From positions 1 to 64,000 of the forward strand of contig NZ_JASAOI010000022.1 of assembly GCF_029953285.1 (NCBI RefSeq): 64,000 nucleotides of DNA, given 5' to 3'. Positions within the stretch are counted from its first letter, which is position 1. Each line of letters starts with the position of its first letter. The stretch comes from Yinghuangia seranimata (GTDB lineage Bacteria > Actinomycetota > Actinomycetes > Streptomycetales > Streptomycetaceae). Below, one piece after another: positions 32,099 to 47,323 of the stretch. The notes beneath the pieces were generated by a model. The model saw only the letters and a program-made list of their open reading frames with translations. It was not told where the DNA came from and ran no database searches. The translations under genes and the position numbers were made by a program.

Positions 32099-32133
32099 CC
32101 GCCCCGCCCGCCGCACCCCGGCAGGCGGGGCGG
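32099..32133 (+). terminator. Terminator after rodA
   Basis: CCGCCCCGCC (32099-32108) pairs with GGCGGGGCGG (32124-32133). Inside, GCCG (32110-32113) pairs with CGGC (32119-32122), extending the stem past one mismatch. Confidence 0.7.
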
Positions 32134-32418: not shown

Positions 32419-33567
32419 ATGGCGGGGAAGTCCGGGGCGGCAGCGGCCGTACCCCTGGGGTGGCCGAGCCTCGGCGCCGCGGAACTGGACGCCGTGGCGG
32501 CGGTCTTCCGGTCCGGCTGGGTGGCCGGTGCGGGCCCCGCGTGCCGTGCGTTCGAAGAGGAGTTCGCCCGCGCGTGCGGCGTCGGCCACGCCGTAGCGGT
32601 CGCCAACTGCACCGCCGGCCTGCACCTCGCGCTGCTCGCGCACGGCGTCGGCGCTGGCGACGAGGTGATCGTCGCCGACTACACGTTCCCCGCCACCGGC
32701 CACGCCGTGCTGTACACCGGTGCCACGCCGGTGTTCGCCGACGTCCGCGCGGACACCGGCACCGTCGACCCCGACGCGGTCGCGGCGCTGATCGGGCCGC
32801 GCACCGTGGGCATCGTCGCCGTGGACGCGGCGGGTCTGCCCGCCGACTACGCCGAGCTCGGCGAACTCGCGGCCCGCCACGACCTGTTCCTCATCGAGGA
32901 CGCCGCCTGCGCGGCCGGCGCCACGTACCGCGGCCGGCCCGCCGGCTCGCTCGCGCCGGTCGCCGCCTTCAGCTTCCACGGCCGCAAGGGCATCACCTGC
33001 GGCGAGGGCGGCGCCGTCGTCACCGACGACGCGGCGTTCGCCGCCAAGGTCCGCAAACTCGCCGCGTTCGGCCTGGAGAGCGCCTGGAACCGCGCCGCCA
33101 GCACCGAACTGCCCGTGCCGGTCTTCGACGAGGCCGGCTACAACTACAAGCTCTCCGACATCGCCGCCGCGATCATGCGCGTGCAGCTGACCCGGCTGCC
33201 CGAACTGCTCGCCGCCCGCGCCCGCGTCGCACAGGGCTACGCCGAGCTGCTGACCGGTCTCGACGGCGTGGCGCTGCCCGGCGTCCCGGACGACCGCACC
33301 ACCACGTGGCAGTCCTACCTGGTGACGCTCGACCCCGGCGTCGACCGCGGCCGGGTCGCCGCCCACCTGCGCGAGCAGGAGATCGGCTGCAACTTCGGCA
33401 CTTACGCCTCGCATGTGCAGCCGGTGTACGGCGCGCGCGAGACCTGCCCGGTGTCCGCCGACCTGTTCCGCCGCCAGCTGGCCGTCCCCATGCACGCCGA
33501 GCTGTCCGAGGCCGACGTCGAGCGGGTCGCCATCGCGCTGCGCAAGGCGGTCGAGAACAGCAGCTGA
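32419..33567 (+). CDS. DegT/DnrJ/EryC1-type PLP aminotransferase
   Basis: Probably transfers an amino group to a keto-sugar nucleotide. The 382-residue protein has the family fold. The PLP lysine is K190 in the SFHGRKGITCGEGGAVVTDD region, and the cofactor-stacking Asp is in the LIEDAACAAGA motif. The start at 32419 (MAGKSGAAAAVPL) follows GGGAG; the frame is open further upstream without support. It is the first gene of the cluster. It and the next two genes point to an amino-sugar route, with the acylation genes downstream. Confidence 0.9.
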   Translation: MAGKSGAAAAVPLGWPSLGAAELDAVAAVFRSGWVAGAGPACRAFEEEFARACGVGHAVAVANCTAGLHLALLAHGVGAGDEVIVADYTFPATGHAVLYTGATPVFADVRADTGTVDPDAVAALIGPRTVGIVAVDAAGLPADYAELGELAARHDLFLIEDAACAAGATYRGRPAGSLAPVAAFSFHGRKGITCGEGGAVVTDDAAFAAKVRKLAAFGLESAWNRAASTELPVPVFDEAGYNYKLSDIAAAIMRVQLTRLPELLAARARVAQGYAELLTGLDGVALPGVPDDRTTTWQSYLVTLDPGVDRGRVAAHLREQEIGCNFGTYASHVQPVYGARETCPVSADLFRRQLAVPMHAELSEADVERVAIALRKAVENSS

Positions 33568-33613
33568 GACCCCGTCCCACCCACCGACCAGCGCAAGCCA
33601 CCAGGAGTTCAGC

Positions 33614-34543
33614 GTGTCCGTCCCCACCGTGTTCTTCTCCGGCGGTGCCGGGTTCATCGCGGGCCACACCATCCCGATCCTGCTCGAACGCGGCTACCGG
33701 GTGCGGATCTTCGACAACATGCTGCGCGGCGACCGGGCCCGGGTCGAGGAGTACGCCGCGACCGGCATGGTCGACCTGGTCGAGCAGGACGTGCGGTACG
33801 GCGCCGCGGTGCACAACGCGATGAAGGGCTGCACGCACGCGGTCCACTTCGCCACGGTGTCGATCAACAAGAGCATCGCGGACCCGTACGAGAGCATCGA
33901 CATCAACGTCACCGGCAACCACAACGTGTTCGCCGCCGCGGCCGACCACGGCGTGCGCCGCCTGGTGTTCGCGTCCTCGGCGTCGGTGTACGGCGACCCC
34001 GAGAAGCTCCCGATGCACGAGGACGACAAGCTCGCGCCGCTCACCCCGTACTGCATCAGCAAGCGCATGGGGGAGGACCTGCTCGGCTTCTACCAGCGCG
34101 CCAAGGGCCTGTCGTGGGTCGCGCTGCGGTTCTTCAACGTGTACGGCCCGGGCCAGAAGACCGAGGCCTACTACACCTCGGTCATCAACACCTTCCTGCG
34201 CCGCATCCGTTCGGGCGAGCCGCCGGTCATCGACGGCCGCGGCGACCAGTCGATGGACTTCGTGCACGTCACCGACATCGCGCGGGCCGTCGTCGCGGCG
34301 CTCGAGAGCGAGCGCGACAACCTGCCGGTCAACATCGGCACCGGCGTCGACACCTCGATCGCGCAGCTCGCCAAGATCCTCATCGCCGCGGTCGGCGCGT
34401 CCATGGAGCCGCGCTTCAACCCGCGCGACGTGCTGGTGTCGCGGCGCGCCGCCGACATCTCCCGGGCCCGCGACGTCCTCGGCTGGGAGCCGCTGGTCTC
34501 GGTCGAGCAGGGCATGGCGGAACTGGTGCGCGGCGCCGTCTGA
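33614..34543 (+). CDS. NDP-sugar epimerase/dehydratase (extended SDR)
   Basis: A UDP-glucose epimerase-like enzyme that likely makes or remodels the sugar nucleotide. The 309-residue protein opens with SGGAGFIAGH. The third Gly of the GxxGxxG motif is Ala, so it is GxxGxxA. Catalytic S-SASVYG (about residues 118-124) and Y146/K150 (PYCISK) are intact. RFFNVYGPGQ and DFVHVTD are typical of the family. The GTG at 33614 has CCAGGAG. It lies 46 nt after the aminotransferase. Confidence 0.9.
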   Translation: MSVPTVFFSGGAGFIAGHTIPILLERGYRVRIFDNMLRGDRARVEEYAATGMVDLVEQDVRYGAAVHNAMKGCTHAVHFATVSINKSIADPYESIDINVTGNHNVFAAAADHGVRRLVFASSASVYGDPEKLPMHEDDKLAPLTPYCISKRMGEDLLGFYQRAKGLSWVALRFFNVYGPGQKTEAYYTSVINTFLRRIRSGEPPVIDGRGDQSMDFVHVTDIARAVVAALESERDNLPVNIGTGVDTSIAQLAKILIAAVGASMEPRFNPRDVLVSRRAADISRARDVLGWEPLVSVEQGMAELVRGAV

Positions 34544-34601
34544 CGCGCACCCCGTCCACCCCCTCAGCCCGCGACTCCCGGAACACCGAAGGTCTCCCGC
34601 C

Positions 34602-35813
34602 GTGCGCATCGCCGTCGTCAACAACTTCTTCCCGCCACGCGTGGGCGGCAGCTCCCATCTGTCCGCCGCACTCGCCCAGGAGTACGCCGCGCGCGGGCAC
34701 GAGGTGATCGTGCTGACCGCGGCGTACCGCGGCGCACCCGCGTACGAGGAGGCCGACGGCGTCCGGATCCACCGGCTGCCCGCGTTCGTGATGCCCAAGC
34801 TGGGCCTGTCGATCGACTTCGACATCACGTTCACCACCGGGCCGCGCAACCTGCGCCGGGTCTTCCGGCTGCTCGACGACTTCCGGCCGGACGTCATCCA
34901 CCAGCACGGCCAGTTCCTCGACCTGAGCTGGCTGACCGGACGCTACGCGCGCAAGCGCGGCGTCCCGGTGCTGCTGTCGGTGCACACCCGCCTGGAGAGC
35001 CCGCGGGCCTTCTACGCGCGCGCGTTCCGCATGATCGACCGGGTCTTCCTGCGCCGCGTGCTGCGCCGCTACGACCCGCGCTACGTGATCATGGACGAAC
35101 TCGCCGCGACCTACTGCGCCGACCGGTACGACGCGACCGCGGACCGCTACGACTACATCCCGGTCGCCGTCGACCCGACCCGCTTCGAGGGCCCGCCCAG
35201 CCGCGACATCCGGGCCGAGCTCGGCCTCGGCGACCGCCCGCTGATCGTCTCGGTCGGGCACGTCATCCCGCTCCGCGACCGCTGCCTGCTCATGGACGCG
35301 CTCCCGGCCGTGCTCGGCAAGTACCCGGACACCAAGCTCGTGGTGGTCGGCAACATCTACTACGACGCCTTCCTGGCGCGGGCCCGCGAACTCGGCGTCG
35401 CGGACGCCGTGGTGTGCGTCGGCGCGGTGCCGAAGGACGACGTCCCGTCCTACTTCGCGGCCGCCGACATCGAGGTCCACGACCTGTCGGGCGGCGGCTG
35501 CGGCACCGCGAGCCTGGAGGCGATGGCGGCCGGACGGGCCACCGTCGTCGCGGTGCGCGAGACCAACTTCCCGGGCATCCGGCTGCGCAACTGGGACAAC
35601 GCGGTGCTGGTGTCCAACCACGACGCCGACGAACTGGCGCTCGCGCTCATTCGGCTGCTCGACGACCCGGCCGAGCGCGCCGCGATCGCGGCCAGGCAGC
35701 GCGCGCTGGTGCACGCCGAGTTCACCCTCGAGCGGGTCACCGAGCAGCACCTGGAGGTGTTCGAGCGGATGCTCGGCCTGGTCCGCGAGGAGGCGGCGGA
35801 TGTTCCTGGATGA
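34602..35813 (+). CDS. Glycosyltransferase family 4
   Basis: A retaining GT-B glycosyltransferase that likely adds the cluster's sugar to a lipid carrier or glycan. The 403-residue protein starts with VVNNFFPPRVGGSSHLSAAL, the acceptor-domain signature. It has the donor-domain core KLVVVGNIYYDAF, VVCVGAVPKDDVPSYFAAAD, and GTASLEAMAAG where the E-x7-E motif usually lies. The GTG at 34602 follows GAAGGTC. It overlaps the next gene by 14 nt. Confidence 0.9.
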   Translation: MRIAVVNNFFPPRVGGSSHLSAALAQEYAARGHEVIVLTAAYRGAPAYEEADGVRIHRLPAFVMPKLGLSIDFDITFTTGPRNLRRVFRLLDDFRPDVIHQHGQFLDLSWLTGRYARKRGVPVLLSVHTRLESPRAFYARAFRMIDRVFLRRVLRRYDPRYVIMDELAATYCADRYDATADRYDYIPVAVDPTRFEGPPSRDIRAELGLGDRPLIVSVGHVIPLRDRCLLMDALPAVLGKYPDTKLVVVGNIYYDAFLARARELGVADAVVCVGAVPKDDVPSYFAAADIEVHDLSGGGCGTASLEAMAAGRATVVAVRETNFPGIRLRNWDNAVLVSNHDADELALALIRLLDDPAERAAIAARQRALVHAEFTLERVTEQHLEVFERMLGLVREEAADVPG

Positions 35814-36453
35814 CGAGCGCAGCCGCCGGCTCCGGCCGGGCATCCTGACCGACCTGGTCGGCCAGTACATGAACGACTCGGAGCGGGCCGCCCTCTACGG
35901 GCTGCCGCCGACCACGCGCATCCGCGAACGCGCCAAGATCGTCAGCCCGGAGCGGCTCGAGATCGGCGACCACTGCTGGATCGGCGAGGGCGCCGTGCTC
36001 GACGCCAGCGGCGGCCTGCGCATCGGCGAGCACACCAGCATCGGCCTCAACGTGCTGGTGTTCACGCATTCCAGCTGGCTCGCCAACATGACCCTGCAGA
36101 ACCACTCCGGCTCGGAGCTGATCGAACGCAAGCCGATCACCATCGGCAAGGGCTGCTTCATCGGCGGCAACAGCGTGATCATGCCGGGCGTCGTCATCGG
36201 CGACTTCGTCACGGTCCAGCCGCTGTCCGTCGTCTTCAAGGACGTTCCCGACCGCTGCATGGTCGGCGGCAACCCCGCACGGGTGTTCCAGCGGTTCGAC
36301 GAGGAGCACGTCGAGGCCGAGGCGCGCCGGGTCCGTGCGGCGAAACCCACCCAAAGTCAGGAATCACCGTGGCCAACCGCATCCACCCCACCGCTGTCGT
36401 CGGTGACGGCGTCGTCCTCGGCGACGGCAACGTCATCGGACCGTACAGCGTGA
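35800..36453 (+). CDS. Left-handed beta-helix acyltransferase (WbbJ/maa type)
   Basis: Probably O- or N-acetylates a sugar. The 217-residue protein shows hexapeptide repeats (IGDHCWIGEGAVLDA ... IGKGCFIGGNSVIMPGVVIGDFV) and the terminal GGNPARVF motif of the family. It starts at ATG 35800, inside the end of the glycosyltransferase gene. Its last 28 codons read through the start of the next gene in another frame. That Ser/Thr/Pro-rich tail (about residues 190-217) looks unlike the rest and may be non-functional or a sign of a missed frame change upstream. Confidence 0.82.
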   Translation: MFLDDERSRRLRPGILTDLVGQYMNDSERAALYGLPPTTRIRERAKIVSPERLEIGDHCWIGEGAVLDASGGLRIGEHTSIGLNVLVFTHSSWLANMTLQNHSGSELIERKPITIGKGCFIGGNSVIMPGVVIGDFVTVQPLSVVFKDVPDRCMVGGNPARVFQRFDEEHVEAEARRVRAAKPTQSQESPWPTASTPPLSSVTASSSATATSSDRTA

Positions 36454-37067
36454 TCGTCGGGCCGTGCCGGATCGGGGACGGGAACTGGATCGGCCCGCAC
36501 GTGACGATCGGCACGCCCGCGGAATGGCGCGGCGGCCCGCACCCGGTCGCCTGGGAGGGTGAACTCGACGGCTCCGGTGTCGAGATCGGGGACCGCAACA
36601 CCATCCGCGAGTTCGTCACGGTGCACCAGGGCACCCGGCGCAGCACGCGGATCGGCGACGAGTGCTACCTGCTCGTGCGCAGCCACGCCGGCCACGACGT
36701 GGTTCTGGCCGACGGCGTCACCCTGTCGTGCTCGGTGCAACTCGGCGGCCACACCGAGGTCGGCGCGCACGCCAACATCGGGATGGGCGCCACCGTCCAC
36801 CAGTTCGGCCGCATCGGCCCGGGCGCCATGGTCGGCATGGGCGCCTCGGTGCGCCGCGAGGTCGGCCCGTTCAGCATCGCCGTCGGCAATCCCGCGCGCA
36901 CCGTCGGCGTCAACGAGGTCGGCCTCAGCCGGGTCGGCATCGAGGGCGACACCGCCGCCGCGATGGGCGAGTACGTCAAGGGCCGCGCCGCGGTGCCCGA
37001 CGGCCTGCCCGCCGACATCGCCGCGCTGCTCGCCGCGTGGGAGCGCCCGGCCCCCGCGCACACCTGA
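36369..37067 (+). CDS. LpxA-like acyl-ACP acyltransferase
   Basis: A close structural relative of LpxA, which transfers a hydroxyacyl chain from ACP to UDP-GlcNAc. The 232-residue protein starts with the LpxA hallmark IHPTAVV. It has the VTVHQGT motif, the SHAGHDVVLADGVTLS segment aligned with the catalytic-His region (AHIAHDC in LpxA), GMGATVHQFGRIG, and the ending VGVNEVGLSRVGI like the LpxA C-terminal start. This is unexpected in a Gram-positive. A gene for ACP lies 49 nt downstream and can be the acyl donor. The GTG at 36369 is supported by the LpxA-like N-terminus despite the 85-nt overlap with the previous gene. Confidence 0.85.
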   Translation: MANRIHPTAVVGDGVVLGDGNVIGPYSVIVGPCRIGDGNWIGPHVTIGTPAEWRGGPHPVAWEGELDGSGVEIGDRNTIREFVTVHQGTRRSTRIGDECYLLVRSHAGHDVVLADGVTLSCSVQLGGHTEVGAHANIGMGATVHQFGRIGPGAMVGMGASVRREVGPFSIAVGNPARTVGVNEVGLSRVGIEGDTAAAMGEYVKGRAAVPDGLPADIAALLAAWERPAPAHT

Positions 37068-37116
37068 CGTCCACCACCCAGCGACATGCCCGGGACGGGC
37101 AGGAAAGGGGAAACCC

Positions 37117-37356
37117 GTGTCCACCAACGACCGGCTGAAGAACGTCTTCGCGTACGCGCTGGACCTCGACGGCGACACCGACATCGAGAGCCTGCGCTAC
37201 CGCGAGATCGACAAGTGGGACTCGCTCGGGCACATGGCGCTGGTCGCCGCGATCGAGGACGAGTTCGACGTCCAGTTCGACACCGACCAGGTGATCGACA
37301 TGAACGCCTACAAGGTGGCGTACGACATGCTGCGGGAGTTGGGCGTCGGTGAGTGA
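37117..37356 (+). CDS. Acyl carrier protein
   Basis: Carries the acyl chain as a thioester on phosphopantetheine. The 79-residue protein is acidic and has the attachment motif WDSLGHM, with S36 as the modified residue, where housekeeping ACPs have DSLD. The GTG at 37117 follows AGGAAAGGGG. It overlaps the ketoreductase by 8 nt. It is a dedicated ACP next to a reductase, an acyl ligase and an LpxA-like transferase, not the fab-cluster AcpP. Confidence 0.9.
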   Translation: MSTNDRLKNVFAYALDLDGDTDIESLRYREIDKWDSLGHMALVAAIEDEFDVQFDTDQVIDMNAYKVAYDMLRELGVGE

Positions 37357-38110
37357 CACGCGCGCCGCGCGGCCGGCCGACCGGGTCTGCGTGGTCACCG
37401 GCGGCACCCGCGGCATCGGGCTGGCCACTGCCCGGGCGCTCGCCGAGACCGGCGCGACCGTCGTCCTGACCGGCCGCGACGAGGCGGCCGCGAAGGACGC
37501 GGCCGCGCGCGTCGCCGCCGAGTACGGCGTCCCGGTGTCCGGCCGCGCGCTGGAGGTCACCGACAGTACCGCCGTCCGCGCGCTGTTCGCCGACGTCGCG
37601 CGCGAACACGGCACGGTCGACTGCCTGGTGGCCAACGCCGGCGTGCTCGAGGACGCGCTCATCGGCATGATCCGCGACGACCTGGTCGACCGCATGCTCG
37701 GCACCAACGTCGCCGGAACGCTGGCCTGCCTCCAGGCCGCCGCGCGCGTGATGATGCGCAAGCGGCAGGGCGCGATCGTGCTGCTTGCGTCGATCGTCGG
37801 TGAACGCGGCAACGCCGGCCAGGCCGCGTACGCCGCGTCCAAGGGTGCGGTCAGCGCGCTCACCAAGTCGGCCGCCAAGGAACTGGGCCGGTACGGCATC
37901 CGCGTCAACGCCGTCGCCCCCGGCGTCATCCGCACCGACATGATCGCCCACCTGCCCGACGACCTGGTCGCCGCGCGCACCGCCGACACCCCGCTCGGCC
38001 GGGTCGGCACCGCCGACGACGTGGCCCGCGCGATCCGCTTCCTGTGCGGCCCCGACGCCGCGTTCGTGACGGGGCAGATCCTCGGCGTCGACGGAGGCCT
38101 GGTCCTGTGA
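37349..38110 (+). CDS. 3-oxoacyl-ACP reductase (FabG-like SDR)
   Basis: Predicted to reduce a 3-oxoacyl chain bound to the neighbouring ACP using NADPH. The 253-residue protein has TGGTRGIG (residues 17-24), the NAG motif (VANAGV), catalytic Ser (LLASIVGERG), and Y161/K165 (AAYAASKGA). The C-terminus (GQILGVDGGLVL) is FabG-like. It overlaps ACP by 8 nt and the next gene by 4 nt, so these three are translated together. A sugar-modifying SDR role is possible but less likely next to ACP. Confidence 0.88.
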   Translation: MSDTRAARPADRVCVVTGGTRGIGLATARALAETGATVVLTGRDEAAAKDAAARVAAEYGVPVSGRALEVTDSTAVRALFADVAREHGTVDCLVANAGVLEDALIGMIRDDLVDRMLGTNVAGTLACLQAAARVMMRKRQGAIVLLASIVGERGNAGQAAYAASKGAVSALTKSAAKELGRYGIRVNAVAPGVIRTDMIAHLPDDLVAARTADTPLGRVGTADDVARAIRFLCGPDAAFVTGQILGVDGGLVL

Positions 38111-39594
38111 CGAACGCGTCCGACCCCGCACCGTCGAGCGGCGGGCCGAAGGGGGACACCGCGGGCCCGCTCGCCGACGAGCTCGTCCACCCCGGCGCCG
38201 TGCTCCTCGACGCCGCCTCCGGCACCCGGCTGACCGGGTCCGAACTGCGCGGCCGCGTCGCGGAGTCCGCCGAGTGCTACACCCGCCTCGCGCCCGGCAT
38301 CGTGTTCGCGCTCACCTCGCCCGACCTGCCGGGCGTGCTGCGCTACCTCGGCGCGCTGGCCGCCGCCCGCCCGGTGCTGCTGCTCGACCCCGCGCTGGAC
38401 CGCACCGCGCTGGAGACCCTCGCGCACCGCTTCCGCCCGGCCGCGATCGTCGGCGCCGACGGCCCCGCCCCACTCGGCTACCGCGCGTTGGACTCGGCCG
38501 GCTGGGTCCGCATCGACCCGGACGCCGCCGAACCGCACCCCGACCTGGCGGTGCTGCTCACCACCAGCGGCTCCACCGGCAACCCCAAGCTCGTGCGGCT
38601 GTCGCGCACCGCCGTCCTCGCCAACGCCCGCTCCATCGCGCTCGCGCTGGGCCTCGGCCCCGGCGAGGTGGCCCCGACCAGCCTGCCGCTGCACTACAGC
38701 TACGGCCTGTCGGTGCTCAACAGCCACCTCGTGGTCGGCGCCACCGTGCTCATCGAGTCGAACGGCGTGCTGGCCCGGCAGTTCTGGCGGTCGGTCGACG
38801 AGCACCGCGCGACCAGCTTCGCCGGCGTCCCCTACCACTACGAGATGCTGCGCCGCATCGGCTTCGACCCGGCCGGGCACCCCGCGCTGCGCACCCTCAC
38901 GCAGGCCGGCGGCCGGCTGCGCACCTCCCTGGTCCGGGACTTCGCGGACCGCATGGAGAAGGTCGGCGGGCGGCTCGTCGTCATGTACGGGCAGACCGAG
39001 GCCACCGCGCGCATGGCCGTGCTGCCGCCCGAGCGCCTCGCCGACAAGCTCGGCACCGCCGGACGGGCCATCCCCGGCGGCGCGTTCGCCATCCGGCCGC
39101 TCGACACGGCCGCGCCCGGGCGCAACGGCGTGGGCCACCCTGTCGCCGAGGCGGCAGGGGAGGCCGTCGGCGAGGTCGTGTACTCCGGCCCCAACGTGAT
39201 GATGGGCTACGCCGAGTCCGAGGCCGAGCTCATGCGCGGCGACGACCTCGGCGGCGTACTGGCCACCGGCGACCTCGGCCGGCTCGACGACGAGGGCTTC
39301 CTCACCGTCACCGGCCGGCTCAAGCGCATCGGCAAGGTCTTCGGCACCCGGGTCAGCCTCGACGACCTGGAGGACCTGCTGCGCGGGCACGCCGCCGCGG
39401 CCGCGGTCCCCGGCGACGACCGCATCGTGGTGTGGCTGGAGGGCGCCGACAGCGAACTGTGCCGCGCCGCCGGGCGCACCCTCGCCGAACGGCTGCGCGT
39501 GCACGCGTCGGGCTTCGACGTGCGCACCGTGCCGACACTGCCGCTGCTGGCCAGCGGCAAGATCGACTACCGCGCGCTGGAGGCCGGCGTATGA
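38107..39594 (+). CDS. AMP-forming acyl ligase (acyl-CoA/acyl-ACP synthetase)
   Basis: Activates a carboxylic acid as acyl-AMP and probably loads it on the cluster's ACP or CoA. The 495-residue protein has the P-loop TTSGSTGNPKL (about residues 151-161), YGQTEATARM, ATGDLGRLDDEG, and the hinge/catalytic Lys (LASGKIDYRAL, near 487). The N-terminus is short and lacks a typical fatty-acyl specificity segment. It starts 4 nt inside the ketoreductase gene (GTGA) and ends 4 nt inside the LuxE-type gene (ATGA). Confidence 0.88.
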   Translation: MTNASDPAPSSGGPKGDTAGPLADELVHPGAVLLDAASGTRLTGSELRGRVAESAECYTRLAPGIVFALTSPDLPGVLRYLGALAAARPVLLLDPALDRTALETLAHRFRPAAIVGADGPAPLGYRALDSAGWVRIDPDAAEPHPDLAVLLTTSGSTGNPKLVRLSRTAVLANARSIALALGLGPGEVAPTSLPLHYSYGLSVLNSHLVVGATVLIESNGVLARQFWRSVDEHRATSFAGVPYHYEMLRRIGFDPAGHPALRTLTQAGGRLRTSLVRDFADRMEKVGGRLVVMYGQTEATARMAVLPPERLADKLGTAGRAIPGGAFAIRPLDTAAPGRNGVGHPVAEAAGEAVGEVVYSGPNVMMGYAESEAELMRGDDLGGVLATGDLGRLDDEGFLTVTGRLKRIGKVFGTRVSLDDLEDLLRGHAAAAAVPGDDRIVVWLEGADSELCRAAGRTLAERLRVHASGFDVRTVPTLPLLASGKIDYRALEAGV

Positions 39595-40694
39595 CCATCG
39601 CGGCGGACCCCGGAGCGAGCGCCGTGCGGGACTTCGTGTTCGCCCGCACGCAGGACGACCGCGAGCGGCACCTGCTGCCCGAGCTGCGCCGGCTGACCGA
39701 GCACCACCGGGCCAACTGCGCGCCGTACGACCGCGTGCTGCGCGCGCTCGGCGTGCCGGCCGGCGACCCTGGCGCGCGCATCGCCGACCTGCCGTGGCTG
39801 CCGGTCCGGCTGTTCAAGCACCACGACCTGGCCAGCGTGCCCGCCGACGCGGTGTTCAAGACGCTGACCTCGTCCGGCACCACCGGCGCCGAGGTGTCCC
39901 GCATCCACCTCGACCGGCAGGCCGCCGCCGACCAGACCCGCGCGCTCAGCCGCACGCTCCAGGCGGTGCTCGGCGGGCGGCGGCTGCCGATGCTGATGGT
40001 GGACACGCCGTCCGTCGTGAAGGACCGCCGCTCGTTCTCGGCGCGCGGCGCCGGCGTGCTCGGCATGGCCGGCTTCGGCCGCGACCACACCTACGTGCTG
40101 GACGCCGACGGCCGGCCCGACCCCGACGCGGTCGCCCGCTTCCTCACCGCGCACGGGAACGCGCCGTTCCTGGTGTTCGGCTTCACCTTCATGGTGTGGC
40201 AGTACCTGTACGAGGTGGCCGCCCGGCACCGCTTCGACCTGTCGCAGGGCATCCTCGTGCACTCCGGCGGCTGGAAGAAGCTCGCCGACCGCGCCGTCGA
40301 CAACGCGACGTTCCGCGCGCGGTTCGCCGCCGACACCGGCCTCACCCGCATCCACAACTACTACGGCATGGTCGAGCAGATCGGCACCGTGTTCGTCGAA
40401 GGCCCCGACGGCGACGCGCTGTACTGCCCCGACTTCGCCGACGTCGTGGTCCGCGACCCGGTGACGTGGGCCGAGCAGCCGGTCGGCGTCCCCGGCGTGA
40501 TCGAGGTGGTCAGCGCGCTGCCGCGGTCGTACCCCGGGCACGTCCTGCTCACCGAGGACCTCGGCGTCGTCCACGGCGTCGACGACGGCCACTGGCCCGG
40601 CAAGCGGTTCTCCGTGCTCGGCCGACTGCCCCGCGCGGAGGCCCGCGGCTGCAGCGACACCTACGCAGAATCCCAGGGAGACAAGCCCGCATGA
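39591..40694 (+). CDS. LuxE-type acyl-protein synthetase
   Basis: LuxE activates a fatty acid with ATP, forms an acyl-enzyme thioester and passes it to LuxC for reduction. The 367-residue protein has the adenylation motif TSSGTTG (about residues 93-99). HSGGWKKL and YYGMVEQIGTVF are typical of the LuxE family, and RGCSDTY near the end contains C354, placed like the LuxE acyl-accepting Cys. It overlaps the LuxC-type gene by 4 nt. No luciferase genes (luxAB) are nearby, so the aldehyde is not for light. Confidence 0.88.
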   Translation: MTIAADPGASAVRDFVFARTQDDRERHLLPELRRLTEHHRANCAPYDRVLRALGVPAGDPGARIADLPWLPVRLFKHHDLASVPADAVFKTLTSSGTTGAEVSRIHLDRQAAADQTRALSRTLQAVLGGRRLPMLMVDTPSVVKDRRSFSARGAGVLGMAGFGRDHTYVLDADGRPDPDAVARFLTAHGNAPFLVFGFTFMVWQYLYEVAARHRFDLSQGILVHSGGWKKLADRAVDNATFRARFAADTGLTRIHNYYGMVEQIGTVFVEGPDGDALYCPDFADVVVRDPVTWAEQPVGVPGVIEVVSALPRSYPGHVLLTEDLGVVHGVDDGHWPGKRFSVLGRLPRAEARGCSDTYAESQGDKPA

Positions 40695-41953
40695 TGATCC
40701 GTCAGCGCTGTCCCGCGGGACCCGACCGGGAACTCGACGGACTGCTCGACGAGCTGGCCGCCGACGTGCCCGGCGGGCCGCTGGCGGTCGGCGACCCGCG
40801 GATCGCCGACTTCCTCGTCGGCTTCGGCCGCACCCTGCTGGAGCCCGCGCTCGTCCGGCGGCACCCCGAACTCGCGCCGCTCGGCTTCTTCCTGCGCCGC
40901 GCCGAACTGGACGCGCAGCTCGCCCGCATCGCCGAGCCCGACGTCGCGGGCGCCCGCCTGATGCGCTTCCCGCGCGGCCTGGTCTTCCACATCCCGCCAG
41001 CCAACGTCGACACGATCTTCGTGTACGCGTGGGCGCTCGCCGCGCTCACCGGCAACCGCAACGTGGTCCGCGTCTCGCCGCGTTCGGGCGCGGCCGCGGA
41101 GCTCGTCCTGGACCGCCTCGGGGCCGCGCTCGCCGACGCGCACCCGGCGGTCGCCGCGACCCAGAAGATGATCACCTACGACCGCGACGACCGGGCCACC
41201 GCCGCCCTGTCGGCGCGCTGCGACCTGCGCGTGGTGTGGGGCGGCGACCACTCGGTCGACGCCGTCCGGCGCGCGCCCCTCGCCCCCGCCGCGCGCGACC
41301 TCACGTTCCCCGACCGCGCCTCGTACGCCGTCGTCTCCGCGGAGGGCTGGCTGCGCGCCGCACCCGACGAGCGCGACCGCGCCGTCGCCGACCTCTACAA
41401 CGACAGCTACTGGTTCGACCAGGCCGCGTGCGCCTCGCCGCGCGCGCTCTACGTGGTCGGCACCGACGCGGACGCCGCCGAGACGCGCGCCGACCTGTTC
41501 GCCCGCCTCGAGGCGCTGCTCGCCGCGCGCGGCGAACCCCTCGACCCCGCGATGGCCGTACACAAGCGCGTCGCCGCCTATGGAGAGGCCGCCGTCGGCC
41601 GCGCCGCCCGGCTCGACTTCCGGGCCGGCGACACGCTCGCCGTCCTCGACCTCGCCGATCCGCTCGACACACCGCGCGGCTGGCTCGGCGCGGGGGCGTT
41701 CCCCGCGGCGACGCTCGCGAGCCTCGCCGACCTCGCGCCCATGCTCGGCCGCCGCGACCAGACGCTCACCCACTTCGGCTTCGCCGCCGACGAGCTCGCC
41801 GCGTTCGCGACCGCCGTGGCCGGGCGCGGTATCGACCGCATCGTGCCGTTCGGATCCGCGCTGTCCTTCGCCCCCGTCTGGGACGGCTACGACCTGCCGC
41901 GCGAGTTCACCCGGCTGACGACCGTCGGGCGTCCCGCCCAGGCCCGTCGGTGA
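40691..41953 (+). CDS. LuxC-type acyl reductase
   Basis: LuxC reduces an acyl thioester to an aldehyde with NADPH. The 420-residue protein has the LuxC substrate/cofactor region FHIPPANVDTIFVYAW (about residues 98-113), GNRNVVRVSPRSG, and the nucleophile C247 in WFDQAACASPRAL. The pairing with LuxE by a 4-nt overlap (ATGA at 40691) mirrors luxC/luxE function. The aldehyde product is probably used by another cluster enzyme, but which one is not clear. Confidence 0.88.
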   Translation: MMIRQRCPAGPDRELDGLLDELAADVPGGPLAVGDPRIADFLVGFGRTLLEPALVRRHPELAPLGFFLRRAELDAQLARIAEPDVAGARLMRFPRGLVFHIPPANVDTIFVYAWALAALTGNRNVVRVSPRSGAAAELVLDRLGAALADAHPAVAATQKMITYDRDDRATAALSARCDLRVVWGGDHSVDAVRRAPLAPAARDLTFPDRASYAVVSAEGWLRAAPDERDRAVADLYNDSYWFDQAACASPRALYVVGTDADAAETRADLFARLEALLAARGEPLDPAMAVHKRVAAYGEAAVGRAARLDFRAGDTLAVLDLADPLDTPRGWLGAGAFPAATLASLADLAPMLGRRDQTLTHFGFAADELAAFATAVAGRGIDRIVPFGSALSFAPVWDGYDLPREFTRLTTVGRPAQARR

Positions 41954-43077
41954 GCGGCTCAGCGGCCGGGCAGGCCGCGCCGGACGAGGCCCGTCCCGGA
42001 ACCGACGCGGCCGACCTCGGGGTCGACCTCGGGGCCGACGTCGGCGGGACTCCCCGGGCGGACCGGGCCCGCGACGGTGCCGCCGGTCCCGTGCCCGAGC
42101 CCACTCCCGCGCCGTCCCGTTCCAAGGCCTGGCTCGGCCGGGTCGGCAAACTGGTGGCGTTGCTGCGGCCGCTGCTGCTCGTGCTGGCGGTCGGCGGCAT
42201 CGCGTACATCGTCCTGCGGCACTGGAGCGACGTTGCCGCGACTCTGCGCGAACTGCCCTGGTACGCCGTGGCGGTCAGCGGCGCGGTGCTGCTCGTCGGC
42301 ATGGCCGTGGGCGTGCTGGCGTGGCAGGTCCTCGTCGACAGCATGGGACGGCCGGTCGGCTTCCGCACCGGCGCGCAGATCCAGCTGGTCAGCCAGCTCG
42401 GCAAGTACGTGCCGGGCTCGGTGTGGAGCTACGTGCTCCAGCTCGAACTCGGCCGCAAGGCGCAGGTCTCCCGCGCCCGCCTGTTCACGGCGACCATCCT
42501 GCACGTCATCATCTCGATCGTCGTGTCGATGCTGCTCGGCATCCTCGCGCTGCCCGTCCTCCTCGACGACGCACCCGGCGTGGCCTGGGTGTTCGTCCTG
42601 CTCCCCGTCGGGTTCGTCGCCCTCAGCCCCGCCGTGCTGGCGCGGGCCGGGGAACTCGTGCTGCGGCTGCTGCGCAGGCCGCCCGTCAAACTGCGCCTCA
42701 CCTGGGGCGTCGTCGGCCGCGTGGCGGGGCTGTCGGGGCTCGGGTACAGCCTGTTCGGCCTGCACCTGTGGATCCTCGCGCGCGCCGTCGCGCCCGCGCA
42801 CCTCGGCCAACTCCTGCTGTGCGTCGGCGCGATCGCGGTCGGCCTCACCGCGGGCGTGTTCGCGTTCGTGCTCCCGTCGGGCGCGGGGGTCCGCGAGATC
42901 GTCATCGTCGCCTCCCTGGCCACCACGATGCCGCGCGGCCAGGCGGTCGCGCTCGCGCTGGTCTCCCGCATCCTGTTCACCGTCGCCGACCTGGTGAGCG
43001 CCGCCGTCGCCGCGCTGCTCGCCCGGGGCGTGCTCAACACCGCCAAGGCGGTGCCCGAGGCGCGGGAGCCCGCATGA
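41950..43077 (+). CDS. Flippase-like membrane protein (lysylphosphatidylglycerol synthase TM family)
   Basis: A polytopic membrane protein (375 aa) with a long hydrophilic, acidic N-terminus (about 60 residues) and about eight hydrophobic segments. The region QLGKYVPGSVWSYVLQLELGRKAQVSRARLF matches the MprF/UPF0104-type flippase family, with the conserved GKY-PG motif. It may move the lipid-linked product across the membrane. The GTG start overlaps LuxC by 4 nt and the stop overlaps the next gene by 4 nt. Confidence 0.78.
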   Translation: MSGSAAGQAAPDEARPGTDAADLGVDLGADVGGTPRADRARDGAAGPVPEPTPAPSRSKAWLGRVGKLVALLRPLLLVLAVGGIAYIVLRHWSDVAATLRELPWYAVAVSGAVLLVGMAVGVLAWQVLVDSMGRPVGFRTGAQIQLVSQLGKYVPGSVWSYVLQLELGRKAQVSRARLFTATILHVIISIVVSMLLGILALPVLLDDAPGVAWVFVLLPVGFVALSPAVLARAGELVLRLLRRPPVKLRLTWGVVGRVAGLSGLGYSLFGLHLWILARAVAPAHLGQLLLCVGAIAVGLTAGVFAFVLPSGAGVREIVIVASLATTMPRGQAVALALVSRILFTVADLVSAAVAALLARGVLNTAKAVPEAREPA

Positions 43078-45152
43078 TGCTCCACCGGCTGTCCGGCGTC
43101 CGCGCCCTGACCGCCCGCGTCCGGCGGTTCACGGAGCGGCGCGGCGGATGGCCGCGGTGGGCCGCGCTGCTGGCGCTCGCCTGGGCCCTGCCGTTCGGCG
43201 CGCACGCCGTCGGCGCCGACCCGCTGTCGCTCCTGGTCGTCTACCTCGGCACCGCGTCGCTGCTGCGGGCCGGCGGCGCGCTGCTCGACCGCCTGGTGTT
43301 CGCGGCCGTCCTGCTGTGCGGCGCGGCGATCGCGGCGGGGCTGGTGTTCTCCGTCTGGCCGTGGGGGCTGGCGCCCGCGCCGATCGCCGCGTGCGGCACG
43401 ACCGCGCTGGTCGCGGTCGCGTTCGCCACCGGCCGGCGCCCGTCGCTTCCACTCCGCGTTCGCTGGCCGGACGCGGTCGCGGCGGCCTCGGGCCTCGCCG
43501 CCGCGGCCACGCTGTGGTGGCCCACGCACGGGCTGGGCTTCCGCAAGTCGCTGCCGTACATGCTCGCCGTCGGACAAGGCGACCGCATGCGGCACTTCAT
43601 GCTGTTCGACGCGATCCAGCAGGTCGGCGGGTACGGCTTCCTGCACGTCGGCCAGGCCCGCACCATCGCCCTGCCCGGCATGGAGAGCAACTACCCCAGC
43701 GGCATGCACTTCCTGTACGCCCTGGGCGACTTCTTCGCACGCTCCACCACGGACACCGGCCCGTCGACCGCGCAGTTCCACCACTACTACCTGTTCGCGA
43801 TCGCCGGATACGCGTTCTTCGTGCTGTGCACCGTGTGGGCGTGCCGCTGGGTCGCCGGCCCCATCGTGAACGAGCGCCTGCGCACCCTCGCGTGCGTGGG
43901 CGTCGGCGCGTACCTGTGCACCGGCGCGCTCATGGCGCAGTTCTGGAACGAGTCGGACGCCGAGATCCTCGGCCTGGCCTTCTTCGCCGTCCTCGTGGCC
44001 GTCATCGCCAGGCCGCCGCTGCCGGCCGGCGACCACGCGCTGCTGGTCGGGGCGCTGGTGGTCGCCCTGGTGTCCGTCTACTCGCTGTTCGCGGTGCCCG
44101 CTGCGCTGTGCATCGCGGTCGGCGCGTACGGCTACCGCACACGGCTGCGCCGCCACCTGCGCGGCTACCTCGGCGTCGGGCTCGCCGCGCTGCCGTTCGT
44201 TCTGGTGCCCGTGGTCGTACCGCGCCTCATCGGCACCCTCGACGTCGGCAACCACCTGCTGCTGCCCGGCCCGATCGTGCGCATGCAGCGGCGCTTCCTC
44301 GTCGCGCTCGGCATCGCCGCGGTCATCGGGCTGTCCTGGCGCCGCACGCGGCGCTCGACGGCGTACCGCGTCATGTTCGGGCAGCTGGTCGCCGCGACCG
44401 CCGCGCTGGCGGTGTTCTGGGCGTACCAGATCGTGTCCGTGGGCCGCACCCTCTACTACTTCGAAAAGGCCCTGCACGCCTGGGCGGTGCTGTGCCTCGT
44501 CGGTATCGCGCCGGTCATGCTGCGGCTGCGCCGCGACCCCGTGCCGGACCCCCGCCGCACGCGTCGCGGCCGGCGCGCGGTCGTCGCGGCCGGGACGGCG
44601 CTCGCGGCCGTGGCCTTCGTCGGCGCCGTGCACTGGGGGAAACCCGAGTACAGCGGCGAGCGGCCCGGCCCCGACATGAACTGGGGGACGGTGTGGGCGT
44701 CCCGGAGCATCACCTACCCGTACCCGCTGACCATGCGCAGCATGGACGTCCTCAACTTCGCCGGCTACACGGGCGACGGCGTGCCCACCATCTCGCTGCT
44801 TTCCGACGACCCGTGGCGCAACGTCGACGCGTCCAACCTGCTCGCGATGCTCAACCACCAGTACGGGACGCTGCAGAAGACGCTCGGCAAGCTCGCCGCC
44901 GTGACCGACCTCGCGCCCGGCACCGCCAAGCGGCCCGCGCCCACCGGCGCCGCGGAGCCCGAGGGCCCGCTGTCGGAACGCGCCGTCGCGAGCCTGCGCC
45001 GCGTGCACAACCTGCTCGCGGGGAGCCCGGTACCGCTCCGGGTCGTCGTGTGGGACCCGTCCGTGGAACGGGAGTTGCGCGCCTTCGCCGCGAAACGCCC
45101 CGAACTGGGCGTCACCGTCGTCCGCGTCGACCGGCTCGGCAAGCCGATCTGA
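43074..45152 (+). CDS. Large multi-span membrane protein, glycosyltransferase-like (copy A)
   Basis: Unknown function. The 692-residue protein has about 12 hydrophobic segments over residues 30-500 and a C-terminal soluble part of about 170 residues. The layout is that of GT-C glycosyltransferases, but I do not see a decisive catalytic motif. Shared with the next protein are GDRMRHFMLFDAIQ, PGMESNYPSGMHFLYAL, HLLLPGPIV, and MLNHQYGTLQKTL. This shows they are paralogues. The acidic GD in the first large loop could be catalytic. It overlaps the flippase gene by 4 nt. Confidence 0.78.
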   Translation: MMLHRLSGVRALTARVRRFTERRGGWPRWAALLALAWALPFGAHAVGADPLSLLVVYLGTASLLRAGGALLDRLVFAAVLLCGAAIAAGLVFSVWPWGLAPAPIAACGTTALVAVAFATGRRPSLPLRVRWPDAVAAASGLAAAATLWWPTHGLGFRKSLPYMLAVGQGDRMRHFMLFDAIQQVGGYGFLHVGQARTIALPGMESNYPSGMHFLYALGDFFARSTTDTGPSTAQFHHYYLFAIAGYAFFVLCTVWACRWVAGPIVNERLRTLACVGVGAYLCTGALMAQFWNESDAEILGLAFFAVLVAVIARPPLPAGDHALLVGALVVALVSVYSLFAVPAALCIAVGAYGYRTRLRRHLRGYLGVGLAALPFVLVPVVVPRLIGTLDVGNHLLLPGPIVRMQRRFLVALGIAAVIGLSWRRTRRSTAYRVMFGQLVAATAALAVFWAYQIVSVGRTLYYFEKALHAWAVLCLVGIAPVMLRLRRDPVPDPRRTRRGRRAVVAAGTALAAVAFVGAVHWGKPEYSGERPGPDMNWGTVWASRSITYPYPLTMRSMDVLNFAGYTGDGVPTISLLSDDPWRNVDASNLLAMLNHQYGTLQKTLGKLAAVTDLAPGTAKRPAPTGAAEPEGPLSERAVASLRRVHNLLAGSPVPLRVVVWDPSVERELRAFAAKRPELGVTVVRVDRLGKPI

Positions 45153-45176
45153 CGGCGGCTCTTGGGAGGGGAACAG

Positions 45177-47282
45177 GTGCTCGACCGTGTTGAGGCACCA
45201 CCCGTCGCACGCGCGGCGGTTCCGGGCGGCCCGCGTGTGCGGCGCGGCAGCCCGTCGCGGCGCACCACCGCCGCACTCGGTCTGCTGGCCGCCGGCTGGG
45301 CCGTCGTCCTGCTCGCGCACCTGGCGCACGCCGACCTGGTCGTGCTGCCGCTGCTCGTCGTCGGGACCGCCGCGCTGCTGCGCACCGGCGGGACGCTGCT
45401 CGACCGGCTCGTCATCGCCGCCGGAGCCGTCGCGGGCGGCGCGCTGGCCGCCGGACTGCTGTTCTCCGTGTGGCCGTGGGGCCTGCACCCGGTCGCCGTC
45501 GGCGGATTCGGCTGGAGCGTGCTCGTCGCGGCAGGCTGGGCGGCCCGCCGCGCGCCCGCGCTGCCGCGCCGCGTGACCGGCGGCGACCTCGTCGTCCTCG
45601 GCACCGGCCTCGGCGCGTGGCTCATGGCCGCCTGGCCCACCGTCAACCGGCCCGCGGTCGACGCCCTCGCGTTCTTCGCCGGCAACGACACCGGCGACCG
45701 GCTGCGCCAGTTCAGCATGTTCGACGCCGTGCTGCGCTTCGACGGCTACCCGTTCCTCGACCCCGGCCGCACCCACGACGTCCTCGTGCCGGGCATGGCG
45801 ACGAACTACCCCGGCGGCACCGGCTTCCTCTATGCGCTCGTCGACTCCTTCCGCACGTCCGGCGGCCCCACGGGCGACGGCGTCGCCGAAGCTCACCGCT
45901 ACTACGGCCTGTTGCTCGGCGGCTACGCGCTCCTCGCCCTCGTCGTCGTCTGGGCCGCCCGCTGGGTCGCCGGGCACCGCGCCGCCGGATGGCGCGGCGT
46001 CCTCGTCCTGACGGCCATCGGCACGTTCGTCGCGACCGGCATCATGACCGCGTTCGTCTGGTACGGCTTCGACTCCCAGGTGCTCGGCCTCGTCTTCACG
46101 GCGCTCACCGTCGCGCTGCTCGTGCGCTACCCGGACCGGCCCGTCGAGCAGACCGTCGTCGCGGGACTCGCGCTGACCGGCGTCGCGTTCACATATCCGC
46201 TGTACGTGCCGGCCCTCGGCGTCGCCGCCGCCGTGACGCTGTGGGGCATGCGCGCCCGGCTCAAGACGCGGCCGGTCGCGACCGCCGCCGCCCTGCTCTG
46301 CGTCGCCCCGCTCGTGCTGCTGCCGATCGCCGTGCCGCGCCTGGCCGGCGACTTCCACGCGGGCTCGCACCTGCTGCTGCGGGGCCCGATCGTCCAGGCG
46401 CCGCGCCACCTGCTGTTCGCCGCCACCGCGCTCGTCACGGTCGTGATGACGGTCACCACGGCACGCAGGGCGCCGACACAGCGGCTCATGGCCGTCCAGG
46501 TCGCCGCCGCCGCGAGCGTCGCCTGCGGACTGTGGCTCTACCAGCGCGTCCGCATCGGGGCGTCCTCCTACTACCTGGAGAAACTCCTCTACGCGTGGCT
46601 CGTGACCGCCCTGATCGCCCTCGGCGGCAGCGGCACGCTGCTGCGCGGCCGCGGCAGACAGCGACGCGCACCTGCCGCGACCGGGGCGCGCCTGTGGCTC
46701 CGGCGCGGCACCGCCGCCCTCGCCGCCGCGCTCGCCGGAGTCTTGATCGCGGGCGGCGTCAGCTTCGGGCGCCCCGAGTTCGCGTCCGGCCGCCCCGCCG
46801 AGAACAACACCTGGGGCCGCGTATGGGCCGCCGGACTCATCGTCAGCCCCGCACAGAACGAACTCGTCGCGATGCAGCGGCGCCGGCTCCTCGGCGACGG
46901 CACGTTCACCATGGTCGTCCTGCGCCACGGCCGCTCCGACTGGCAGAGCGCCCTGGTCACCATGCAGGCCGCCGCCATGAACCACCAGCTCGGCAGGCTC
47001 GAGGACTACGTCGCCACGATGCCGCTCGTGCCCGTCGACAAGGAAGAGGCGCGGTCCGCGCTCGACCCCATGTGGTACGTCAGCCGGAACTGGGCCGACA
47101 ACCTGGAGATCTACGCCCGGAAGACCCCGACGCCGCTGCGCATCGTCTCGTTCGAGCCCGACGCGACCACCGCACTTACTGCGGCGGCGGCCCGGAACCC
47201 GTGCCGGTGCGTGCGCGTCGTCCCCGTGGGCCCCGGCGTACCGCCCGTCGCAGCGGTCTCAGCCGCTCCGGGCAGGCGTTAG
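45177..47282 (+). CDS. Large multi-span membrane protein, glycosyltransferase-like (copy B)
   Basis: Paralogue of the preceding protein (701 aa), with the same layout: Arg-rich N-terminus, many spans, and a C-terminal soluble domain. Matching motifs are GDRLRQFSMFDAVL, PGMATNYPGGTGFLYAL, HLLLRGPIV, and AMNHQLGRLEDYV. Divergence is substantial, so the two copies are old. The GTG at 45177 follows GGGAGGGG. It lies 24 nt after copy A. It ends the cluster, 41 nt before the radical-SAM gene, with no terminator between them. Confidence 0.78.
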   Translation: MLDRVEAPPVARAAVPGGPRVRRGSPSRRTTAALGLLAAGWAVVLLAHLAHADLVVLPLLVVGTAALLRTGGTLLDRLVIAAGAVAGGALAAGLLFSVWPWGLHPVAVGGFGWSVLVAAGWAARRAPALPRRVTGGDLVVLGTGLGAWLMAAWPTVNRPAVDALAFFAGNDTGDRLRQFSMFDAVLRFDGYPFLDPGRTHDVLVPGMATNYPGGTGFLYALVDSFRTSGGPTGDGVAEAHRYYGLLLGGYALLALVVVWAARWVAGHRAAGWRGVLVLTAIGTFVATGIMTAFVWYGFDSQVLGLVFTALTVALLVRYPDRPVEQTVVAGLALTGVAFTYPLYVPALGVAAAVTLWGMRARLKTRPVATAAALLCVAPLVLLPIAVPRLAGDFHAGSHLLLRGPIVQAPRHLLFAATALVTVVMTVTTARRAPTQRLMAVQVAAAASVACGLWLYQRVRIGASSYYLEKLLYAWLVTALIALGGSGTLLRGRGRQRRAPAATGARLWLRRGTAALAAALAGVLIAGGVSFGRPEFASGRPAENNTWGRVWAAGLIVSPAQNELVAMQRRRLLGDGTFTMVVLRHGRSDWQSALVTMQAAAMNHQLGRLEDYVATMPLVPVDKEEARSALDPMWYVSRNWADNLEIYARKTPTPLRIVSFEPDATTALTAAAARNPCRCVRVVPVGPGVPPVAAVSAAPGRR

Positions 47283-47323
47283 GCTGGGAGGCTGTTCCCC
47301 CATCCCCTCCCGGAGGATGCACC

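What the first reader, a model, noticed from the sequence alone, without database searches (positions are those of the whole stretch)
32419..47282. A compact acyl/amino-sugar cluster inserted between rodA and a radical-SAM gene
Seen in sequence: thirteen same-strand genes with 4-14 nt overlaps between most of them. They encode an amino-transferase, sugar epimerase, GT4, two beta-helix acyltransferases, ACP, ketoreductase, acyl ligase, LuxE-type and LuxC-type subunits, flippase-like protein and two large membrane proteins. Known: in Streptomyces I know the rodA to rne interval as much shorter. Inferred: a pathway that makes an acyl-modified amino sugar attached to lipid or wall, with the LuxC/LuxE pair making an aldehyde. 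I know no described product for this gene set.
Basis: partly seen in the sequence, partly recalled or inferred. Interest (0 to 1): 0.85.

Follow-up and report, generated by a model that had tools for sequence, protein, structure and literature searches.

The report
Acyl-amino-sugar surface-glycan operon in Yinghuangia
A soil actinomycete carries a compact set of genes that probably makes an amino sugar capped with a short hydroxy-acid and attaches it to its cell surface, using a relay of enzymes related to those behind bacterial light production and behind a sugar decoration of the cholera bacterium.

Summary
In detail: 13 same-strand genes lie between rodA and a radical-SAM gene, 8 of 12 junctions overlapping. 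The insertion is in 3 of 3 Yinghuangia genomes; 37 other relatives have about 20 bp to 8.7 kb there. Five genes (ACP, SDR, AMP-ligase, LuxE, LuxC) form a module kept in that order in 83 of 91 similarity-chosen loci. The same order is in print for Aeromonas flagellin-glycosylation islands, read there as fatty-aldehyde genes. I read it as a tetronate-type supply of a short hydroxyacyl-ACP: LuxE/LuxC reduce one carboxyl of a small diacid, the SDR reduces the aldehyde, ligase and ACP carry the acid to an N-acyltransferase. Support: an acyltransferase often abuts the module (LpxA-like in Actinobacteria, PseH-like or PglD-like elsewhere); one relative has an Fe-alcohol dehydrogenase in place of the SDR; an unexplained 102-Da unit in Aeromonas AH-3 flagellin glycan fits dihydroxybutanoyl (C4H6O3). 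One large membrane protein models as a GT-C glycosyltransferase and the other is its paralogue, so the sugar is probably flipped and added outside. Substrate and product are inferred, not tested. New variant of a known kind.

The parts
32419..33567 (+). DegT/ArnB-like PLP sugar aminotransferase (382 aa)
   Evidence: Pfam DegT 2.8e-101 (with a longer start); best solved relatives ArnB 2.8e-65 and perosamine synthetase 8.6e-61
33614..34543 (+). extended SDR, GalE-type sugar-nucleotide epimerase (309 aa); carries SSASVYG, an epimerase-type motif (meaning recalled)
   Evidence: Pfam Epimerase; solved relatives include UDP-glucose 4-epimerase, UDP-glucuronate decarboxylase, WbpP and WbgU
34602..35813 (+). 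GT4 glycosyltransferase (403 aa)
   Evidence: Pfam Glyco_trans_4_4 and Glycos_transf_1
35800..36453 (+). hexapeptide (WcaF/maltose-acetyltransferase-like) transferase (217 aa)
   Evidence: Pfam Hexapep; NCBIfam WcaF family 73 bits, under cut-off 192
36369..37067 (+). LpxA-like acyltransferase, proposed acyl-ACP-dependent N-acyltransferase of the amino sugar (232 aa)
   Evidence: NCBIfam LpxA 176.9 bits under cut-off 226; H109 aligns with E. coli LpxA H125, M157 with G173
37117..37356 (+). acyl carrier protein (79 aa), module gene 1
   Evidence: DSL site, WDS in 16 of 16 rows; PP-binding 18.9 bits, under cut-off 20.8
37349..38110 (+). SDR reductase, FabG-like by family score (253 aa), module gene 2; proposed aldehyde reductase
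   Evidence: Pfam adh_short_C2 2.7e-63; N120, S148, Y161, K165 kept in at least 14 of 15 rows
38107..39594 (+). AMP-dependent acid ligase, proposed acid:ACP ligase (495 aa), module gene 3
   Evidence: Pfam AMP-binding; nearest solved relatives an NRPS-type ligase (3wvn, 3wv4) and oxalate/oxalyl-CoA ligases
39591..40694 (+). LuxE-type acyl-protein synthetase (367 aa), module gene 4
   Evidence: Pfam LuxE 2.8e-41; C354 in 16 of 16 rows, in line with the GCS of solved LuxE 7xc6_E
40691..41953 (+). LuxC-type acyl-thioester reductase (420 aa), module gene 5
   Evidence: Pfam LuxC 4.6e-24; C247 in 16 of 16 rows, in line with the DQQAC cysteine of solved LuxC 7xc6_A
41950..43077 (+). LPG_synthase_TM (MprF flippase-type) membrane protein (375 aa), proposed lipid-sugar flippase
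   Evidence: Pfam LPG_synthase_TM 54.5 bits, cut-off 33.4
43074..45152 (+). large membrane protein A (692 aa), paralogue of B, proposed GT-C glycosyltransferase
   Evidence: 35% identical to B in A1; fold inferred from the model of B
45177..47282 (+). large membrane protein B (701 aa), GT-C fold by model; start could be 45162
   Evidence: AlphaFold2 model pTM 0.75, mean pLDDT 68, 7 sequences; VIA-align Z 18.1 Pmt4, 15.0 AftB, 13.2 ArnT

Best explanation
The operon makes an exported glycan unit that carries an amino sugar N-acylated with a short hydroxy-acid. Shown: gene identities, conserved catalytic residues, module synteny, GT-C model. Inferred steps: (1) LuxE adenylates one carboxyl of a small, polar dicarboxylic acid and passes it to the LuxC cysteine; LuxC reduces it to a semialdehyde. 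(2) The SDR reduces the aldehyde to the hydroxy-acid. (3) The AMP-ligase loads this acid on the ACP. (4) The DegT enzyme makes the amino-sugar nucleotide and the LpxA-like transferase moves the hydroxyacyl group from ACP to its amine. (5) GT4 passes the sugar to a carrier, the LPG_synthase_TM protein flips it, and the GT-C proteins add it to an outside acceptor. The chemistry of steps 1-4 is that proposed for tetronate (2,4-dihydroxybutanoyl) on V. cholerae O1 perosamine.
For: Core order ACP-SDR-AMP-LuxE-LuxC on one strand in 83 of 91 loci. Acyltransferase beside the module: LpxA-like directly upstream of ACP in 49 of 91 loci; PseH-like upstream of ACP or SDR in 25 of 31 loci of one gammaproteobacterial order, PglD-like in 1 more and 1.2 kb off in another; GNAT in Chitinophaga L100 and PglD-type in Campylobacterales L101 and Deinococcus L117. 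The Aeromonas paper also prints the five genes directly downstream of pseH in strain AH-3. Different acyltransferase folds in one slot fit an acyl-donor role. A DegT gene is in the stretch in 80 of 89 loci outside Yinghuangia. In L180 the set is ACP, AMP-ligase, Fe-alcohol dehydrogenase and a LuxE-LuxC fusion, homologous to the window's LuxE (35%, 6e-53), LuxC (23%, 2e-17), ligase (28%, 5e-24) and ACP (33%, 2e-11) (E-values for a three-protein set), with the LuxE cysteine kept: an alcohol dehydrogenase stands where the SDR is. In print: RfbL takes 2,4-dihydroxybutanoate, RfbK is its putative carrier; tetronate is made from malate. No ketosynthase is among the 13 genes. Aeromonas AH-3, of the group with the same five genes, has an unknown 102-Da unit; C4H6O3 is 102.032.
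Against: No substrate or product was tested. 102 Da is a nominal mass; C5H10O2 (102.068) fits the reported total of 1491.5 as well, and AH-3 is the only module-bearing strain whose glycan I saw described. In the gammaproteobacterial set the strict order holds in only 20 of 31 loci. The SDR is missing from 8 loci (L072, L078, L083, L097; L173, L174, L185, L194), and in the three Amycolatopsis genomes checked the best other match is 45% identical (150 of about 250 candidates scored in two of them). The SDR looks like FabG by family score. Micromonosporaceae loci have no acyltransferase directly beside the module; only weak PseH-like hits lie about 1.5 kb behind LuxC in 5 Micromonospora loci. The epimerase-like SDR does not explain a 4-keto substrate for the aminotransferase. 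That RfbM is an Fe-ADH and RfbN a LuxE/LuxC protein is recalled, not read.
Confidence: 0.6

Rival explanations
1. Lipid reading: LuxE/LuxC make a long-chain fatty aldehyde or alcohol that becomes part of a glycolipid ('liposugar'), as authors of the Aeromonas and enterobacterial island papers suggested.
For: Family names and published suggestion; LuxC/LuxE in light-producing bacteria act on fatty acids (recalled).
Against: LuxE and LuxC score 51.5 and 25.8 bits against cut-offs of 550 and 750 for the long-chain families; the LpxA-like protein has Met where E. coli LpxA has Gly173, which in P. aeruginosa LpxA goes with C10 (recalled); the nearest solved relatives of the ligase include oxalate ligases; the 102-Da unit is no fatty acyl.
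Confidence: 0.15
2. Two separate acyl branches: ligase, ACP and FabG-like SDR give a medium-chain 3-hydroxyacyl-ACP that the LpxA-like enzyme puts on the amino sugar, as in lipid A; LuxE/LuxC serve another step.
For: LpxA-like 166-177 bits with the catalytic His kept; the SDR matches FabG models best.
Against: LuxE/LuxC stay with ACP and ligase across phyla even where no LpxA-like protein was found; Fe-alcohol dehydrogenase can stand in for the SDR (one locus); no ketosynthase among the 13 genes.
Confidence: 0.15
3. A secreted small molecule (amino-sugar natural product) rather than a surface glycan.
For: Uncommon and patchy in the class: 3 of 394 evenly drawn genomes at E 1e-90, the window's own included.
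Against: A GT-C model and a flippase-type protein in the same operon; relatives sit beside pseudaminic-type genes (25 of 89 loci) and in some loci beside glf; no peptide or polyketide synthase among the 13 genes.
Confidence: 0.07

Closest known systems
Aeromonas Group II and enterobacterial flagellin glycosylation islands (PMC7874193, PMC4875605; passages read)
   Same: Aeromonas: the same five genes in the same order (ACP, 3-oxoacyl-ACP reductase, AMP-dependent synthetase, luxE, luxC), downstream of pseH in AH-3. Enterobacteria: the same five gene types listed (order not given in the passages read)
   Different: Aeromonas has pseudaminic-acid genes and a Maf; here an LpxA-like transferase, a different sugar set, a flippase-type protein and GT-C-type proteins, between rodA and a radical-SAM gene
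V. cholerae O1 tetronate pathway (rfbKLMNO; passages of PMC12208996, PMC3441752, PMC10746206 read)
   Same: ACP, acid ligase, LuxE/LuxC proteins, acyltransferase, DegT amino sugar (roles of RfbM, RfbN, RfbO and RfbE recalled)
   Different: SDR instead of Fe-alcohol dehydrogenase; LuxE and LuxC separate; LpxA-like transferase. The window's LuxE is 41-57% identical to module LuxE of other phyla but 35% to the LuxE part of the fused L180 protein
LpxA of lipid A synthesis
   Same: LpxA-family sequence, catalytic His kept
   Different: below both LpxA cut-offs, shorter C terminus, Met at the ruler position
lux fatty-acid reductase (LuxC, LuxE)
   Same: both conserved cysteines align with those of solved LuxE and LuxC
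   Different: far below the long-chain cut-offs; no luciferase gene among the 13

Membership tests
Five-gene ACP-SDR-AMP-LuxE-LuxC glycan module | five genes in that order on one strand | tested here: met
   Window genes 37117-41953; order printed for Aeromonas Group II
Flagellin glycosylation island | pseudaminic-acid genes and Maf beside the module | tested here: not met
   None of the 13 genes matches NeuB, Maf or a cytidylyltransferase family in Pfam; genes outside the 13 were not all scanned
V. cholerae O1 tetronate pathway | carrier, acid ligase, LuxE and LuxC proteins homologous to the RfbKLMN-type set | tested here: inconclusive
   Homology shown to the L180 set; L180 is unnamed and its likeness to rfbKLMN is by architecture and recall; the V. 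cholerae proteins were not at hand
V. cholerae O1 tetronate pathway | Fe-containing alcohol dehydrogenase | tested here: not met
   SDR in its place
V. cholerae O1 tetronate pathway | substrate malate, product 2,4-dihydroxybutanoyl group | not testable with these tools
   needs enzymology or mass spectrometry
LpxA (lipid A) equivalog | NCBIfam LpxA score over cut-off | tested here: not met
   176.9 against 226 and 166 against 231.05 bits
Long-chain lux fatty-acid reductase | NCBIfam LuxE and LuxC over cut-off | tested here: not met
   51.5/550 and 25.8/750 bits
GT-C glycosyltransferase superfamily (protein B) | GT-C fold | tested here: met
   By model only: ranks 1 to 46 are GT-C transferases or complexes holding a GT-C-type subunit (assignment of some rows recalled), Z 9.2-18.1, 6-14% identity; Foldseek alone weak, AftA E 2.2e-3
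Exosortase A acyl ligase TIGR03098 | score over cut-off | tested here: not met
   135.1 against 592.35 bits

The most novel reading that the evidence does not exclude
The ACP-reductase-ligase-LuxE-LuxC module is a portable hydroxyacyl-capping cassette, found here in Actinobacteria, Pseudomonadota, Campylobacterota, Bacteroidota, Acidobacteriota and Deinococcota, that plugs into whichever amino-sugar N-acyltransferase is at hand (LpxA-like, PseH-like GNAT or PglD-like). Its 'fatty aldehyde' annotation is wrong, it accounts for the unknown 102-Da unit (and perhaps the 376-Da pseudaminic acid) of Aeromonas flagellin, and glycan capping rather than light production is the commoner job of LuxC/LuxE relatives.
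Probability: 0.45. Interest if true: 0.75.

Novelty: new variant of a known kind. Interest (0 to 1): 0.6.

Why it matters
If true, a module that the two papers found here call fatty-acid or liposugar genes gets a definite chemistry, many surface-glycan clusters gain a predicted acyl group, and unexplained masses in published flagellin spectra can be re-read. For actinomycetes it predicts an envelope sugar not described in what I could search, in Yinghuangia, Amycolatopsis, Lentzea, Saccharothrix and Actinoplanes.

Tried and rejected
Rejected: Streptomyces-type ordinary wall operon (the interval is short in the relatives); lipid A synthesis (below LpxA cut-offs); bioluminescence; PEP-CTERM/exosortase ligase. 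Led nowhere or weak: the promoter and terminator scan of 30700-49600 found no promoter-like site and no + strand terminator-like site, which says little in a genome of over 70% GC; protein 6 and protein 3 were run in a wrong frame and the genes were scanned correctly; the family F27 beside pse genes in Micromonosporaceae was aligned as a possible acyltransferase but the member scanned has no Pfam match and it was not folded; the 376-Da pseudaminic acid fits acetyl replaced by dihydroxybutanoyl (376.148 against 376.14), but a review calls the lateral-flagellin derivative probably phosphorylated, so I do not lean on it. The Aeromonas fgi-1 mutant loses the 102-Da unit together with the rest of the chain while the module is intact, so it tests nothing here. 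Transketolase-bearing LuxC/LuxE loci (L098, L119, L129; L177, L182, L186, L196), one with an HMGL-like synthase and one with part of it, suggest a variant in which the aldehyde is lengthened; not followed. Wilhelms 2012 is not held and Morona 1995 was seen only as a reference-list entry.

Selection limits: the 91 loci were chosen for likeness to the window's LuxE or fetched from genomes with such a hit; many are Amycolatopsis, so they are not independent, and two of the 91 are Yinghuangia. L102 (3.3 kb) and the short loci were left out of the counts; L028 counts as a miss because its ACP was not found in place. The 31 gammaproteobacterial loci are 31 of the 32 genomes that matched at 1.2e-76 or better (the 32nd is L130, seen apart). 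In one search gene neighbours are those that matched a query only; distances to the acyltransferase were measured. The cysteine counts rest on 16 of 97 proteins.
Full report
Observation. Eight of twelve junctions overlap, seven of them by 4-14 nt and one, between the two hexapeptide-transferase genes, by 85 nt. The genome is a Yinghuangia: a genome listed as same genus (G002) has a contig of the same length as Y. soli NZ_JAKFHA010000050.1. In 3 of 3 Yinghuangia genomes rodA and the radical-SAM gene are 13.4-23.9 kb apart; of 38 other relatives, 37 could be measured and have about 20 bp to 8.7 kb, 36 of them at most 3.3 kb (distances between match ends). Gene order from DegT to the flippase-type gene is the same in all three, but the last block holds 1, 2 or 3 copies of the large membrane protein.

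The conserved core. tblastn of the window genes against the 80 loci and later loci shows that ACP, SDR, AMP-ligase, LuxE and LuxC travel together. On 91 loci of at least 10 kb the strict one-strand order holds in 83; the 8 exceptions lack the SDR (L072, L078, L083, L097), have it elsewhere or split (L098, L119), have LuxC turned (L118) or no ACP found (L028). In the whole class the module-type LuxE is uncommon: 3 of 394 evenly drawn genomes at E 1e-90, the window's own included. In one gammaproteobacterial order (class name taken from Thiodictyon, L098) 39 of 295 genomes match at 1e-5, 32 of them at 1.2e-76 or better. Of 31 stretches fetched from these, the strict order holds in 20; others lack the SDR (L173, L174, L185, L194), swap SDR and ACP (L184, L191) or are rearranged.

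What stands beside the core. Outside Yinghuangia, 43 of 89 loci have DegT, an LpxA-like gene and a Gfo/Idh oxidoreductase in the stretch, 24 have pse-type genes with DegT and no LpxA-like gene, 5 have the Yinghuangia-type DegT and SDR (4 of them together with the Gfo/Idh set), and 3 have transketolase. An LpxA-like gene is directly upstream of ACP in 49 of 91. In the 31 gammaproteobacterial loci a PseH-like gene lies within 141 nt upstream of ACP or SDR in 24 and 17 nt upstream of ACP in L173, so 25 of 31; a PglD-like gene takes that place in L183 and lies 1.2 kb off in L186. The Aeromonas paper prints the five genes downstream of pseH. Chitinophaga L100 has a GNAT gene there and Campylobacterales L101 a PglD-type gene; Deinococcus has a PglD-type gene behind LuxC. 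This is my main argument that the core supplies the acyl donor for an amino-sugar acyltransferase. It is an inference from position. Against it, the Micromonosporaceae loci have no such gene directly beside the core, only weak PseH-like hits about 1.5 kb behind LuxC in 5 Micromonospora loci.

Active sites. LuxC C247 and LuxE C354 are kept in 16 of 16 aligned proteins and align with cysteines of solved LuxC and LuxE (that these are the catalytic ones is recalled). The SDR keeps N120, S148, Y161 and K165 in at least 14 of 15 rows. The LpxA-like protein keeps the residues aligned with E. coli H122, H125, H144 and H160 and has Met at Gly173. LuxE and LuxC are far below the long-chain NCBIfam cut-offs.

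Known parallels. The same five-gene order is printed for Aeromonas Group II islands, and the five gene types for enterobacterial islands, both read as fatty-acid or liposugar genes (passages). V. cholerae O1 puts tetronate on perosamine; genes VC0248-VC0252 are assigned to it, RfbL takes 2,4-dihydroxybutanoate with RfbK as putative carrier, and the acid comes from malate. In an unnamed relative (L180) I found ACP, AMP-ligase, Fe-alcohol dehydrogenase and a LuxE-LuxC fusion in a row, homologous to the window's ACP, ligase, LuxE and LuxC. The alcohol dehydrogenase standing for the SDR, in this one locus, points to aldehyde reduction as the SDR's task. Aeromonas AH-3, named among Group II strains, carries an unexplained 102-Da unit at the end of its flagellin glycan; a dihydroxybutanoyl residue weighs 102.032. 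The reported masses cannot tell it from C5H10O2, and it is one strain.

Destination. The model of membrane protein B (pTM 0.75, mean pLDDT 68) matches GT-C transferases: Pmt4 Z 18.1 over 342 residues, AftB 15.0, ArnT 13.2. Foldseek alone gave only AftA at E 2.2e-3, and the tool warns that helical models can reach Z 13-14 without clear relatives, so I rest on ranks 1 to 46 all being GT-C-type (some assignments recalled). With the MprF-type protein this points to flipping of a lipid-linked sugar and transfer outside.

Open points. Which acid, which amino sugar and which acceptor are unknown. The epimerase-like SDR does not give the 4-keto sugar an ArnB-like enzyme would need. The module can lack its SDR. 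In ten library searches the only papers I recognised as describing the core were the Aeromonas and enterobacterial ones; I saw listings and passages, not all hits.

Noticed in passing
window 50039-51793: 584-aa ORF with no Pfam match: Pro/Val/Glu repeats at the start, then many Trp- and Arg-rich amphipathic repeats such as LRWLGRWI; a 40% relative lies at the same place in another Yinghuangia (L111).
   Followed up: partly
window 49350-49580: Small DUF7387 protein directly behind the radical-SAM gene.
   Followed up: no
window 36369-36453: 85-nt overlap of two hexapeptide-transferase genes in different frames; 82 nt between the matches in both other Yinghuangia genomes.
   Followed up: partly
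L182:174-7840, L196:365-9628, also L177, L186, L098, L119: LuxE/LuxC with both halves of a transketolase; L182 also has an HMGL-like synthase (part of one at the edge of L196), L196 and L177 a TPP enzyme: a variant pathway that seems to lengthen the aldehyde.
   Followed up: partly
L182:13598-17066: A second LuxE-LuxC fusion next to a histidine kinase gene.
   Followed up: no
L024, L025, L028, L054, L072 and others: In a number of Pseudonocardiales loci the cluster lies near glf and a HAD gene, that is near arabinogalactan-type genes.
   Followed up: partly
window 17664-20458: Three minus-strand ORFs of about 300 aa with no Pfam match.
   Followed up: no
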